Assembly (NCBI RefSeq): GCF_040958095.1
Contig: NC_091188.1
Coordinates: 2,946,181-3,010,180 of the forward strand
Reading direction: 5' to 3'
Origin: Procambarus clarkii
Taxonomy: Eukaryota > Arthropoda > Malacostraca > Decapoda > Cambaridae
DNA length: 64,000 nucleotides
Within the stretch, counting starts at the first letter, position 1. Each line of letters starts with the position of its first letter. Below the pieces are notes generated by a model. It searched no databases. It saw nothing but the letters and a program-made list of their open reading frames with translations, and was not told the origin of the DNA. The translations under genes were made by a program, and so were the position numbers. Below are positions 31,246 to 53,176 of this stretch, piece after piece.

Positions 31246-33979
31246 CGACTGCCCACTACAGTCTAACTAAATCTACATGTTCTGAACAGCCATAAATAGG
31301 AAATAAATACTTACTGCTTCCAATTAATTTTTACTTCCCTACTGGGTCCTTATTGCACAATAAGAGAAGTCTAAGATAGTCAGTCCCAGCCTCATTGAGC
31401 CAATTTCCCGACTGAGTTCCTAATGCAACATTAGAGTTGATAAAATACGATTGACACTCTTGCAAAGTTCTGTTGTTACACTAAAATATGCAGACCAGAA
31501 CACATTTTTTTAATTTAGACAAGAAACAGATTACAGAGTGGGTTTAGCCTGTACTGTAAATACACTAATCTGTTTACAGCTGCTTCTCATTAAAAAAAAA
31601 ATTATTTTGAAAGCGCTGATAATAAAAATAAACATCCAAAATTAAATTAATGTCCATGTATATAAATTTCCGGATGCAAGTATTCAGCAACATTTAGACC
31701 GATTGATGAAAATCGATACGCCTTCCATATCTTGCAAACCCATATTACTACATCATCTTGCTTGGTGACTTCAATTTATAGCCTCCTAAAATTATGATAA
31801 ATGATGTTATACCAAAGAAATTTTTTAAATAGGCACAAATGACCAGTTAAGGCTCCCTGGTAAACTTGTCTTAAACAGGCAAATAGCAGAACCAACTAAG
31901 AAACGCCTTAGACTTTCGCTTCACGAACATTGATGAACTGATAAGAAATATGATTATTACAAATTCAATTCACTCAGATTACAACCTATTTGAAGTTCAG
32001 AGAAGCACAGACCTACGCTTCTCTGAACATCTGAACTGAAGCATGAACATGCACCTACATGATCTATGTAGCCCGCCTCAAATAGATTTATTTACTTGAA
32101 AGTAAATAAATAAAACATCGCACAAATAGTTTGCGAAGAACACTTGAATGACGTAAACGTAAGTCAGTGTCTTTATAAAATAAGCACCGTAGCACATGAC
32201 ATATGATCAATTCACATATCACTAAGAAAAAGAGAGAAATACAAATGGAGATAGAGCAGAACTCTCTTTATAGGCGAAAAACACAAACCACAAATCATTC
32301 TTGAGAACGACAAGAAAAGTTATGAAGGGAAATATAAGTTACAGAGGAATAGCATAAGTCCAGCAAAGAGAATTAAAGAGAGGAGAAAACCGTCAACGAA
32401 ATCTAAAGATCAAAAAATTTATTATATGCAAACTCCTGATAAAAACACATCTAGTATTGGCCTTTTTCCCAATTCCTCCAGAGCGTGACCCTGACCTCGA
32501 CTCCCATCTCATATCACCCTCAACCAACTGGACTTCTGAATCATCCATAAATAGCATGCCCATGCACTCCGTTCCAGGCCCAGACTCCTAGAGTTCCATT
32601 TTCATCAAGAATTTAGTAACAATAAAGAACGACCACAAGTCATATACGTATAGGAAAATGAAGCCAAGATTCATTTTCTTCTTTTTCTCAAGTCTCTTTT
32701 CTTCAGTCTCCTCCCGGACACAAAACAATTTCCCCCATTGATACATCACGTTAATATGATTTCATTTGCATTTGAAGAGAAACGATGGAGGTAGAATTCC
32801 TAGACTACAAAGCCAGATTGTATGAGGGAATTGTGTAAAACCCTGATTAGGCTTCAGTGGACGATTCAGAAACCGTAGAAAATTCAGCTGAATCCCAGAT
32901 TGGAAATCTTTTGACCGTGTCGTGGTGTATTGGTCAAAGGCGTTTGCTTGGGAGTACTCAGAGCATAGGTTCGAGACGTTCTCGTGGCTCCTACTGATAT
33001 TCTCCATATTATCATTATTGTTAATATTATTATAAAAATTTATTATATTACAATTATTATTATAATTATTATTATTATTATTTTTTACTACTATTATTAT
33101 TATTAATATTATTATTATTATTGAGAAAATCAATTAGAGCCACGAGGGGATTGCTATACAACTTGGGATTCCACTCAATACACAGGACGTTTAAAATAGT
33201 GTGATTTCCTTAATTGAGTATTTGAAGCTCGAGCGTATGGTGTAAAAATAGCATTACCTATACCAGAGTACATGGGGGTTATATAGACAACCTGAACTTG
33301 CTTCCTCCAGACGTCCTGTAAATTCAGCGGAATCCCAGGTTGTATAACATATACCATGTCGTGGTACTGGGGTAAAGTGTGCTGTTTTGGAGTACTCAGA
33401 CCGAGGGCTCGAATCCCCTCATTGTTCTAATTGATTTTCTTATTGATATATCACGTACGTTAGTGTGATTTCCTTGTGATAATAATAATAATATTAATTA
33501 TTATTATTATTATTATTATTATTATTATTATTATTATTATTATTATTATTACTGATATTATAATATTGCTGAGGAGCTGGACTGGATATTCGTTTTGATA
33601 ACCAGCTACAATAAGTATTTTATCACTGGAATATTAAAGACTCCGTAATTGAATAATGACAACGTCCCACAACGACCCAGGACTCGACGATCACTAAGCT
33701 TTAACAAACACACAACTGTCCTGTCAGTAACAAAATTAATACACATTGGTTCCAGTTATTCAGTTGTAAGTTACGGCAATGTAACAGTAAAATTAATTAG
33801 AGAAGTGTTTAGAAGATGGACGTCAATTTTGAGTGAATAATTCGTTAAAGTATTATTTACCGGAATGATGTCACCAGAAACGTTACTCTATTTTGCGTGG
33901 TGTCCCAATATTTCACAGATAACTGCATGACTGGTGGCTCCGGCTTCTCTCAGGGAGAGGAAAGTTACCAAGTCATCAT

Positions 33980-34078
33980 TGACCTTTGGTGAAGTCGCCG
34001 ATGAAGGAATGGTGAGGCTGGTGACTCGGGGTCCGGTTGGAGGTATAAAGCCAGGCTGGAGACCAGGGAGGAGTCAGT
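33980..34078 (+). promoter_or_regulatory. P8 core promoter, L type
   Basis: TGACCTTTG at 33980-33988 (reverse CAAAGGTCA, a perfect AGGTCA nuclear-receptor half site but one base off the FTZ-F1 consensus), TATAAAG 34044-34050, TCAGT 34074-34078. Half site to TATA is 64 bp because of three extra bases in the GAAGTCGCCGATGAAGG stretch. Confidence 0.7.
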
Positions 34079-34112
34079 GTCTGCTCATCACCCCATCATC
34101 ACACTACCAAAC

Positions 34113-35343
34113 ATGTTCACTTCTGTACGTATTATTCATTTTCAAATCTCTAAAAAGCGAAGTTTTATATTCACTACTAAGTGATTACATCTACAAACTT
34201 GAAAAGCAATATTTAATTGAAAACGTTAAATTAGGATAGATTATGTGTAAGACTAAGGCCCATCGACTGCTTAGACAATTATTACTCCATAGTAGTTCAA
34301 TTTCCATCCTGTAGTTATCTTTTAGTTCCAAACAGTATAGAATTCAAATACAATTTATGTGTATAAAAAAATCGTGACATTACATTCCATTTTTGGAAAC
34401 TTATTTTCAATTGTGTAAAAGTTATTGCAGTGGTTCAGTCACATTTTCTCAAAACATATTGAGGTGGTACAACATATAATCATACTTCCCTAATGACACG
34501 CACACCTGTAAGAAATGGAGCATTGATGAGGAAGTATTTAAAGTAACTAAGTCCCTCTGGTTGCACTTGTTATTGAGTGTGAACATCGGGTTATAACCGT
34601 TATTCACTTCATAAGAGAGGCTACAACAATTATTTAGTGTGTATAGGGTTTTACGCCAATAATTGAGTGAATACGGAGATTATAACTGTTACCGAGTTCG
34701 TACATCTGAATGTTCGTGATAACATCTGTTACTGTGTACGGATAGATACACCTGTTACAAAGTGTGTACAACAGGGAGGGTTATATCTGATATTGGGTTA
34801 ATACAAGAAGTTACACTTATTACTGATAATACATTAGAGTAATTTACAGTAATACAAACGTAAAATGATTGGCCAAAATAGTGTATAGAACCATTCATCT
34901 AACCCACAACAGTTAATGTCTTGTGTTCCCACAGGTGGTGTTGATGTGCATGCTGGTGGCCGCTGGTGTGGCTCTCCCAGGTGGATACCAGCAAGCATCT
35001 TATGTACGTCATCACATGTTTCAAGATTTTCTAACTTTAACATAATACCATAATTATATATAATAGAATACTGTGTGAAGATGGCAATAAAAATGTCACT
35101 TTGATGTGTCCACAGGCGCCTCTGCCCTACGATTTCAACTACGGGATCAACTCTGGAGCCACCAACTTCGGCCAGCAAGAGAGCGGCAACAATGGCAACG
35201 CCAAGGGCTCCTACTGGGTCAACTTACCTGACGGTCGCGTCCAGAGGGTTGATTACTGGGCCGACGGTAGCGGATATCATGCTACCGTGAGCTTCCAGGG
35301 CACAGCCACCCATCCCAGTTATGCTCCCTCTTATGGCTACTAA
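34113..35343 (+). CDS. P8: pro-resilin-like RR cuticle protein
   Basis: Exons 34113-34124, 34935-35003 and 35116-35343; introns of 810 and 112 bp. QQASY and TATHP. The sequence after exon 2 reads CACATGTTTCAAG where old copies have CACGTGTTTCACG, a marker of P8-P13. Two AATAAA motifs (35390-35395 and 35401-35406). Confidence 0.9.
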
Positions 35344-51369: not shown

Positions 51370-51803
51370 ATTAATACTGGTATAATAATATTGCTGAGGA
51401 GCTGGACTGGATATTCGTTTTGATAACCAGCTACAATAAGTATTTTATCACTGGAATATTACAGACACCATAACTGAATAATGACAACGTCCCACAGCGA
51501 CCTGGGTCTTGACTCTCACTAAGCTTTAACAAACACCTAACTGTCCTGTCAGTAAGAAAATTAATACTCATTGGTTCCAGTTGTTCAGTTGTAAGTTACG
51601 GCAATGTAACAGTAAAATTAATTAGAGAAGTGTTTAGAAGATGGACGTCAATTTTGAGTGAATAATTCGTTAAAGTATTATTTACGGAATGATGTCACCA
51701 GAAACGTTACTCTATTTTGCGTGGTGTCCCAATATTTCACAGATAACTGCATGACTGGTGGCTCCGGCTTCTCTCAGGGAGAGGAAAGTTACCAAGTCAT
51801 CAT

Positions 51804-51903
51804 TGACCTTTGGTGAAGTCGCCGATGAAGGAATGGTGAGGCTGGTGACTCGGGGTCTTTGCTGGAACTATAAAGCCAGGCTGGAGACCAGGGAGGAGTC
51901 AGT
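51804..51903 (+). promoter_or_regulatory. P13 core promoter, S type
   Basis: TGACCTTTG 51804-51812, TATAAAG 51869-51875, TCAGT 51899-51903. Confidence 0.7.
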
Positions 51904-51937
51904 GTCTGCTCATCACCCCATCATCACACTACCAAAC

Positions 51938-53176
51938 ATGTTCACTTCTGTACGTATTATTCATTTTCAAATCTCTAAAAAGCGAAGTTTTATATTCACT
52001 ACTAAGTGATTACATCTACAAACTTGAAAATCAATATTTAATTGAATACATTAAGTTAGGATAGATTATGTGTAAGACTAAGGCCCATCGACTGCTTAGA
52101 CAATTATTACTCCATTGAAGCTCAATTTCCATCCTGTAGTTATCTTTTAGTTCCAAACAGTATAGAATTCAAATACAATTTATGTGTATAAAAAATCGTG
52201 ACATTACATTCCATTTTTGGAAACTTATTTTTAATTGTGTAAAAGTTATAACAGTGGTTCAGTCACATTTTCTCAATACATATTGAGGTGGTACAACATA
52301 TAGTCTTACTTCCCTAATGACACGCACACCTGGGAACACCTGTGGGTAATGAAGCGTTGATGAGGAAGTAGGAAAGTAACTAAGTCCCTCTGGTTGCACT
52401 TGTTATTGAGTGTGAACATCGGGTTATAACCGTTATTTACTTCATAAGAGAGGCTACAACAATTATTTAGTGTGTATAGGGTTTTACGCCAATAATTGAG
52501 TGAATACGGAGATTATAACTGTTACCGAGTTCGTACATCTGAATGTTCGTGATAACATCTGTTACTGTGTACGGATAGATACACCTGTTACAAAGTGTGT
52601 ACAACAGGGAGGGTTATATCTGATATTGGGTTAATACAAGAAGTTACACTTATTACTGATAATACATTAGAGTAATTTACAGTAATACAAACGTAAAATG
52701 ATTGGCCAAAATAGTGTATAGAACCATTCATCTAACCCACAACAGTTAATGTCTTGTGTTCCCACAGGTGGTGTTGATGTGCATGCTGGTGGCCGCTGGT
52801 GTGGCTCTCCCAGGTGGATACCAGCAAGCATCTTATGTACGTCATCACATGTTTCAAGATTTTCTAACTTTAACATAATACTATAATTATATATAATAGA
52901 ATACTGTGTGAAGATGGCAATAAAAATGTCACTTTGATGTGTCCACAGGCGCCTCTGCCCTACGATTTCAACTACGGGATCAACTCTGGAGCCACCAACT
53001 TCGGCCAGCAAGAGAGTGGCAACAATGGCAACGCCAAGGGTTCCTACTGGGTCAACTTACCTGACGGTCGCGTCCAGAGGGTTGATTACTGGGCCGACGG
53101 TAGCGGATATCATGCTACCGTGAGCTTCCAGGGCACAGCCACCCATCCCAGTTATGCTCCCTCTTATGGCTACTAA
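51938..53176 (+). CDS. P13: pro-resilin-like RR cuticle protein, last of the young sub-array
   Basis: Exons 51938-51949, 52768-52836 and 52949-53176; introns of 818 and 112 bp. TATHP as in P7-P12. Exon 3 has silent GAGAGTGGC and AAGGGTTCC; the latter is otherwise seen only in P7. The 3' flank switches abruptly to an old type (GAGTTTCATTAGTTGGCAAC). AATAAA at 53355-53360. Confidence 0.9.

What the first reader, a model, noticed from the sequence alone, without database searches (positions are those of the whole stretch)
31246..53176. L-S-L-S-S-S architecture of a young sub-array
From stop codon to stop codon the units measure 4098, 3434, 4098, 3449, 3422 and 3430 bp. L1-S1 recurs as L2-S2 at a constant 7532-bp offset, then S units follow alone. 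This orders the events: an L/S dimer formed, the dimer was duplicated, then S was amplified by unequal exchange. S looks like an L unit that lost about 680 bp (31951-32632).
Basis: seen in the sequence. Interest (0 to 1): 0.7.

Follow-up and report, generated by a model that had tools for sequence, protein, structure and literature searches.

The report
Young tandem array of cuticle genes
Six nearly identical copies of an arthropod cuticle-protein gene sit in a row as long-short-long-short-short-short units; the copying was recent and most likely by misaligned crossing-over, an ordinary process whose steps can here be read unusually clearly.

Summary
Stop to stop, the six units measure 4098, 3434, 4098, 3449, 3422 and 3430 bp. 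L1 and L2 are identical over 4098 bp; S1-S4 differ by 2-6 substitutions; L and S are 93.5% identical. Each unit carries one intact three-exon gene for a 102-aa CPR cuticle protein (Pfam Chitin_bind_4). They belong to an array of at least 22 copies over about 95 kb in a 4.03-Gb genome.

The 680 bp is the inside of an old LINE fragment. Dispersed LINE copies run clearly through its left edge and weakly past its right edge, so S most likely lost it.

S1 and S2 share a derived base and a microsatellite allele, and gene 2 carries a gene-1-type exon end. S most likely multiplied first; the L-S pair was duplicated last, by an exchange within 147 bp at the end of gene 2. The divergence statistics alone are weak.

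This is a new member of a known kind: a CPR sequence cluster growing by unequal exchange and conversion. A second two-unit exchange lies in an older part of the array. No reads were available, so assembly error is not excluded.

The parts
30191..31245 (+). gene 0 (g0): left boundary of the sub-array; its 3' flank is the L-type spacer
   Evidence: 3-exon CPR gene, whole frame open; last mismatch against gene 2 at 31110, identical from 31111 onward.
31246..35343 (+). unit L1 (L spacer + gene 1)
   Evidence: 4098 bp, identical to L2.
35344..38777 (+). unit S1 (S spacer + gene 2)
   Evidence: 3434 bp; 2 mismatches and 15 gap columns against S2.
38778..42875 (+). unit L2 (L spacer + gene 3)
   Evidence: 4098 of 4098 bases identical to L1.
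42876..46324 (+). unit S2 (S spacer + gene 4)
   Evidence: 3449 bp; 15 bp more TAT repeat than S1.
46325..49746 (+). unit S3 (S spacer + gene 5)
   Evidence: 3422 bp; 5 mismatches to S1 and to S2, 6 to S4.
49747..53176 (+). unit S4 (S spacer + gene 6); right boundary of the sub-array
   Evidence: 3430 bp; three C-to-T states in the last 295 bp that no other S or L unit has (each is found in one older copy); flank differs from the other flanks from the first base after the stop.
31484..32670 (+). degraded LINE (non-LTR retrotransposon) fragment in the L1 spacer; limits approximate, the last 38 bp weakly supported
   Evidence: Local matches to dispersed copies, one of which (L017) has endonuclease (PF14529, 1.2e-14) and reverse transcriptase (PF00078, 1.8e-16) domains. 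Pfam finds nothing in four pieces of L1 and one of S1.
31951..32632 (+). 682-bp inner part of the LINE fragment, kept in L1 and L2, absent from S1-S4
   Evidence: Left edge: 20 of 34 dispersed loci align through it in L (query start q1-4, end q128 or beyond, scores 70-138); for the same 20 the S-junction alignment stops within 7 bp of the junction in 17. Right edge: in 14 of 30 loci the true following bases add score and at most 5 of 100 shuffled tails add as much.
39483..40164 (+). the same 682 bp in L2
   Evidence: 31951-32632 shifted by 7532; L1 = L2; found as a second full match.
38643..38789 (+). interval that must hold the exchange which joined S1 to L2 (end of exon 3 of gene 2 plus 12 bp of flank)
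   Evidence: Gene 2 equals gene 4 (S type) up to 38789 and equals gene 0 plus its flank from 38643.
34606..35343 (+). 738-bp tract identical between L1 and S1 (late intron 1 to the stop): recent L-S homogenisation
   Evidence: 0 of 10,000 permutations of the differences give so long a run.
33177..33439 (+). second L-S identity tract, 263 bp, in the spacer
   Evidence: 0 of 10,000 permutations.
34113..34124 (+). exon 1 of gene 1 (12 nt); TATA box 63 bases before the CCAAACATG anchor
34935..35003 (+). exon 2 of gene 1
   Evidence: AG and GT splice sites and length 69 kept in 22 of 22 copies.
35116..35343 (+). exon 3 of gene 1, Chitin_bind_4 domain
   Evidence: PF00379, E 3.6e-16; length 228 in 22 of 22 copies, whole protein open in the 21 translated.

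Best explanation
This is a recently grown stretch of a tandem array of at least 22 CPR (Rebers-Riddiford, chitin-binding) cuticle-protein genes in an arthropod genome. A LINE fragment lay in one intergenic spacer. That spacer and its gene were duplicated into L and S forms, and S lost 682 bp of the LINE. Patches were later homogenised between L and S by gene conversion. The S unit was then multiplied by unequal exchange, which also gave the inner S genes the gene-1 type of exon 3. Last, chromatids paired two units out of register and exchanged between an S gene and gene 0 within 147 bp at the end of exon 3, giving L-S-L-S-S-S. The likely use is dosage: g1-g6 encode one identical 102-aa protein. 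Shown: the anatomy, identities and mosaic junctions. Well supported: the direction of the deletion. Inferred: crossing-over as the agent, the order of S amplification and dimer duplication, and dosage as the benefit.
For: Unit lengths and identities. CPR domain; open frames in the 21 copies translated whole, splice sites kept in 22 of 22, identical g1-g6 proteins. 22 copies at C39:2921917-3017173. LINE continuity through the left edge in L, weaker past the right edge, and EN/RT domains in a dispersed copy. Gene 2 is a junction of S type and g0 type. S1-S2 sister in the best tree with a shared microsatellite-2 allele. Clustered L-S differences: dispersion index 6.79 against a permuted mean of 0.90, and 738- and 263-bp identical runs reached in 0 of 10,000 permutations. 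An independent two-unit exchange in the left sub-array: unit u3 is u5-like for the first 76 informative sites (6 misfits) and u1-like for the next 75 (2 misfits), while u2 = u4 at 99.84%.
Against: The order rests on few sites: with microsatellites and the last 310 columns excluded, Fisher p is 0.077-0.363, and one-site conversion from L into S3/S4 could mimic the pattern. The first microsatellite does not support S1 with S2 (S1 = S3). S4 shares the 34540-35048 identity with L although it keeps its own exon-3 end, so at least one conversion besides the crossovers is needed. The best S tree does not match a simple left-to-right amplification. The right edge of the LINE block is weakly supported, and the dispersed loci were fetched with L sequence only. 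No reads were seen. No expression data were seen, so dosage is conjecture.
Confidence: 0.7

Rival explanations
1. One reading: an L-S dimer formed, was duplicated to L-S-L-S, and then the last S was amplified to S-S-S.
For: The row of units reads naturally that way; S2, S3 and S4 are adjacent. With microsatellites and the end of exon 3 left out, the three pairs with S4 are not significantly more diverged than the dimer pair (p 0.363).
Against: Needs 10 steps against 8. S1 and S2 share a derived A at L1:33897 and the second microsatellite allele. Gene 2 lacks the exon-3 states of gene 6 that it should have if it came from the last S unit before amplification.
Confidence: 0.2
2. Assembly artefact: the second L-S block (L2-S2) is a false duplication made where the assembler met near-identical repeats or the two haplotypes.
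For: L1 and L2 are identical over 4098 bp, microsatellites included, and the block's edge lies in a repeated exon.
Against: S1 and S2 differ by 2 substitutions and 15 bp. The window has no N. Distinguishing variants lie about 5-8 kb apart (31110, 36391, about 43924), which 10-kb accurate reads would bridge. A similar two-unit exchange with a mosaic unit is seen elsewhere in the array, where the copies are somewhat more diverged.
Confidence: 0.13
3. The 682 bp is an insertion gained by L rather than a loss from S.
For: Older units show no counterpart of this spacer, so no in-array outgroup exists. The right edge lies at or near the end of clear LINE similarity: only 14 of 30 testable loci gain clearly from the bases beyond it, by small scores of 2-19, and 10 alignments stop before it.
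Against: Dispersed LINE copies are continuous through the left edge in 20 of 34 loci, as in L; S-junction alignments stop within 7 bp of the edge in 17 of those 20. An insertion would have had to supply, in register, exactly the LINE sequence that follows the left edge.
Confidence: 0.05

Closest known systems
CPR 'sequence clusters' in tandem arrays of Anopheles gambiae (PMC2259329; passages seen)
   Same: Compact tandem arrays with subsets coding near-identical proteins while introns and UTRs differ; short first exon interrupting the signal peptide; TATA box; copy number varies between strains.
   Different: Here a 4-kb repeat module with a LINE-marked spacer lets individual exchanges be placed; probably a decapod (recalled from the character of the genome, not tested), not an insect.
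Concerted evolution of Drosophila CPR genes, arrays 84A, 67F and 65A (PMC2793513; passages seen, some of them from the abstract)
   Same: Interlocus gene conversion centred on the R&R consensus; tandem duplication; dot-plot evidence.
   Different: [quoted passage not shown] here whole-unit exchange in two-unit steps is seen.
Tandem cuticle-protein genes of decapods: Litopenaeus vannamei (PMC6341167; passages seen) and Callinectes sapidus / Portunus trituberculatus (PMC10712104; passages seen)
   Same: Tandem duplicates above 98% identity that include cuticle proteins; 20 CP7-like genes in a 1.19-Mb region of the blue crab.
   Different: The passages seen give no unit-level history or breakpoints.
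Higher-order repeats of satellite DNA made by unequal crossing-over (recalled; search listing only)
   Same: Multi-unit blocks repeat as a higher-order unit.
   Different: Units here are 3.4-4.3 kb protein-coding genes and only two dimer copies were seen per sub-array.

Membership tests
CPR cuticle protein (Chitin_bind_4) | Chitin_bind_4 / R&R domain above Pfam's cut-off | tested here: met
   PF00379, 59.7 bits against a cut-off of 25
CPR cuticle protein (Chitin_bind_4) | Signal peptide split by an intron after a very short first exon | tested here: inconclusive
   12-nt exon 1 followed by a hydrophobic exon 2 in 21 of 22 copies; exon 1 of the 22nd, a5, found separately. The signal peptide is judged by eye only; no predictor and no transcript was used.
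CPR cuticle protein (Chitin_bind_4) | RR-1 or RR-2 subclass | not tested
   No subclass model was run.
CPR sequence cluster under concerted evolution | Tandem genes with near-identical proteins but different non-coding parts | tested here: met
   22 copies; mean over 231 pairs: pN 0.0094, pS 0.086, intron 2 0.166
CPR sequence cluster under concerted evolution | Sign of gene conversion or unequal exchange | tested here: met
   Permutation test on L/S differences; mosaic unit u3 and mosaic gene 2
Non-LTR retrotransposon (LINE), for the 682-bp block and its surroundings | Endonuclease and reverse transcriptase domains in related copies | tested here: met
   One dispersed locus was tested, L017: PF14529, PF03372 and PF00078
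Non-LTR retrotransposon (LINE), for the 682-bp block and its surroundings | Recognisable domain in the window copy itself | tested here: not met
   No Pfam match to four pieces of the L1 spacer and one of S1 at E up to 10; the copy is degraded and is called a LINE fragment only through DNA similarity to dispersed copies.
Higher-order repeat (satellite-like) | Multi-unit block repeated with higher identity between blocks than between units within a block | tested here: met
   L1S1/L2S2 2 of 7132 sites against L/S 6.5%; left array u2/u4 99.84% against u1/u2 95.37%. Only two block copies each, so an incipient case.

The most novel reading that the evidence does not exclude
The array grows mainly in two-unit steps: chromatids pair two genes out of register and exchange, seen independently in the L/S sub-array (exchange in exon 3) and in the older 4.3-kb sub-array (exchange about 2.25 kb into a unit). 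This gene array would be caught at the birth of a higher-order repeat, as in satellite DNA, with a LINE deletion as a built-in tracer.
Probability: 0.3. Interest if true: 0.45.

Novelty: new member of a known kind. Interest (0 to 1): 0.3.

Why it matters
Tandem cuticle-protein arrays are known in insects and decapods, but their growth steps are usually blurred by conversion. Here a LINE fragment, an internal deletion, distinguishing substitutions and microsatellite lengths mark the units, so individual exchanges can be placed to about 150 bp (gene 2) or 16 bp (unit u3). The locus is a likely copy-number polymorphism and a good place to measure exchange rate and register in a protein-coding array. 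It does not reveal a new kind of system.

Tried and rejected
Pfam on frame pieces of the spacer gave nothing; the LINE identity came from DNA search of the own genome and Pfam on one dispersed locus. A hairpin-rich or MITE-like reading of the block was considered: the DNA fold has z -3.39 against 20 shuffles, but LINE similarity explains the block and I saw no target-site duplication by eye. L as the gained form was set aside on the left-edge test; the right-edge test is weak. A control search of the genome with the S-type junction, to look for dispersed copies with that junction, was asked for four times and never answered, so it is missing. Older units as outgroup for the spacer: no counterpart except a 54-bp minus-strand match near 25.25 kb. 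Fisher tests of divergence were too weak to settle the order alone. The two 23-bp minisatellites upstream match at 14 of 23 positions, reached in 461 of 20,000 shuffles: weak, left as a note. No relatives of this genome are held, so polarity could not be checked in another species. Paper searches on cuticle-gene arrays and concerted evolution, decapod cuticle clusters, cuticle protein with unequal crossing-over, and gene-array higher-order repeats showed no unit-level history of this kind in the listings; I read only passages of four papers.
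Full report
What is there. The window lies at C39:2946181-3010180 of a 4.03-Gb genome of 2308 contigs. It holds part of a tandem array of one gene. The gene has a 12-nt exon 1, a 69-nt exon 2 and a 228-nt exon 3 and encodes a 102-aa protein with a Chitin_bind_4 (R&R) domain. The genome search, whose counts are lower bounds (150 of 396 candidates scored), lists 22 copies of 95-97% protein identity at C39:2921917-3017173, six more at 67-68% some 3 Mb away on the same contig, and weaker matches elsewhere. Exon lengths and splice dinucleotides of exons 2 and 3 are kept in 22 of 22 copies; 21 were translated whole and are open. Exon 1 of the last copy, a5, was found separately. 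One copy, at 22385-22837, is on the minus strand. A TATA box lies 63 bases before the start-codon anchor in 20 of the 21 copies scored and 61 in the other. That the animal is a decapod crustacean is my recall of such genomes, not a test.

The observation. The six stop-to-stop lengths are exactly as stated. L1 equals L2 at 4098 of 4098 positions, microsatellites included. S1-S2 differ at 2 positions plus a 15-bp repeat-length change. S3 differs from S1 and S2 at 5, and S4 differs from each other S at 6. L and S differ at 217 of 3359 aligned sites, very unevenly: from 8 to 23 per 100 sites in most of the spacer up to about 33170, but zero over 34606-35343 and 33177-33439. Runs that long were reached in 0 of 10,000 permutations. 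The late part of intron 1 (about 34535-34898) has no listed match in gene 0, so shared constraint is an unlikely reason for the identity; recent conversion or exchange is a better one.

Direction of the 680-bp change. The L spacer from about 31484 resembles dispersed repeats found on many contigs. One of them, L017, carries endonuclease and reverse transcriptase domains, so the spacer holds an old non-LTR retrotransposon fragment. I aligned to the L and S edges the 34 dispersed loci that the two searches with L sequence had fetched; a search with the S junction did not complete, so the choice of loci leans towards L. At the left edge, 20 of 34 run through as in L, from the first four bases of the query to base 128 or beyond, where the edge is at base 71; scores were 70-138 against a shuffled maximum of 40. 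One more (L020) starts at base 60 and 13 show no clear signal there. With the S junction the same 20 loci score 45-76, and in 17 of them the alignment stops within 7 bp of the junction; three go further. At the right edge, 20 of 34 alignments run past 32632, most to about 32670, 10 stop before it and 4 show no clear signal. In a stricter test, the true bases beyond the edge add score in 14 of 30 testable loci with at most 5 of 100 shuffled tails adding as much; the gains are small (2-19), and copies of one family are not independent. The right edge is therefore weakly supported. Older array units show no match to this spacer except a 54-bp minus-strand match near 25.25 kb, so within the fetched stretch the LINE-bearing spacer is confined to this sub-array.

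Order of events. Eight substitution sites vary among S1-S4 where L has a base. Of 15 rooted trees, ((S1,S2),S4),S3 needs 8 steps; four need 9, two of which do not pair S1 with S2; the other ten, among them all three that group S2, S3 and S4 without S1, need 10. The informative sites are 33897 (S1 = S2 = A; L, S3, S4 = G) and 33559 (S3 = L). The second microsatellite has the same allele in S1 and S2 only; the first does not support the pair (S1 = S3). Outside microsatellites the dimer pair differs at 2 of 7132 sites, pairs with S3 at 4-5 and pairs with S4 at 5 of about 3213 (Fisher p 0.033-0.079). Without the last 310 columns p is 0.077 for S3 against S1 or S2 and 0.363 for the three pairs with S4. 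Gene 2, where S1 meets L2, is S-type up to 38789 and g0-type from 38643, so the exchange fell within those 147 bp. Gene 2 lacks the three C-to-T states of gene 6 and the two exon-3 T states of gene 0, and has the gene-1 type. Under crossing-over this is expected if the donor was an inner S copy that had already received gene 1's exon end during S amplification. One-site conversions could still mislead.

Right and left borders. Gene 6 departs from the other S genes immediately after its stop codon, and gene 0 departs upstream of 31111. Both ends of the sub-array therefore lie in or next to exon 3, a part that is much alike among all copies. Genes 0-6 share a threonine near the C-terminus where the other 15 copies have lysine, which suggests that they are one clade.

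A second case. In the older left sub-array (u1-u6, units of 4253-4301 bp, C39:2922151-2947880; its last 1.7 kb are the start of the window), u2 and u4 are 99.84% identical and u1, u3 and u5 alternate with them. At 151 sites where u1 and u5 differ, u3 is u5-like for the first 76 (6 misfits) and u1-like for the last 75 (2 misfits), with the switch between C39:2932974 and 2932990. That is the product expected from a crossover between u5 and u1 two units out of register. Two such events in one array suggest that two-unit steps may be common here, but two is a small number.

What it works like and what it is. Evolutionarily it is a CPR sequence cluster under concerted evolution, as described for mosquitoes and Drosophila (PMC2259329 and PMC2793513, passages seen) and consistent with decapod reports of tandem cuticle genes (PMC6341167, PMC10712104, passages seen). 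Genes 1-6 give one identical protein, so the simplest benefit is dosage at the moult; this is inference. In the blue crab only a few copies of such an array were highly expressed, which warns against assuming that all copies matter.

Limits. No reads, no relatives and no expression data were available. The exact identity of L1 and L2 is what a very recent duplication gives, and also what an assembly error could give; I put the latter at 0.13. The confidences of the rivals are for separate questions and need not sum to one.

Noticed in passing
C39:2922151-2947880 (left of the window; its last 1.7 kb are window 1-1700): Older sub-array of about 4.3-kb units with A-B-A-B alternation; unit u3 is a two-part mosaic of u5 and u1 with a switch mapped to 16 bp.
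   Followed up: yes
window 22385-22837, minus strand: One copy of the gene is inverted relative to the other 21; a matching promoter piece lies at about 23565-23692 on the same strand.
   Followed up: partly
window 34034-34043 against the matching bases in S1: The ten or so bases just upstream of the TATA box differ between L and S. The four S genes have ACTATAAAG; the other 17 copies scored have GGTATAAA. S units may have a changed core promoter.
   Followed up: no
window 29566-29983 and 27035-27270: Two 23-bp minisatellites (about 18 and 10 copies) shortly upstream of gene 0; consensus units match at 14 of 23 positions, only weakly beyond chance (461 of 20,000 shuffles).
   Followed up: partly
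all 22 copies, exons 2-3 against intron 2: Among ten older copies synonymous sites differ about half as much as intron 2 (0.074 against 0.166; lower in 40 of 45 pairs), so exons are either converted more often or constrained at silent sites. Among the six b copies the difference is small (0.051 against 0.060; lower in 5 of 15 pairs).
   Followed up: partly
window 12212-12281, minus strand: A tRNA-Thr (CGT) call stands alone inside the array; may be a tRNA-derived SINE or a stray tRNA gene.
   Followed up: no
C39:5937988-5963824: A second tandem set of six related genes (67-68% protein identity) about 3 Mb away on the same contig.
   Followed up: no
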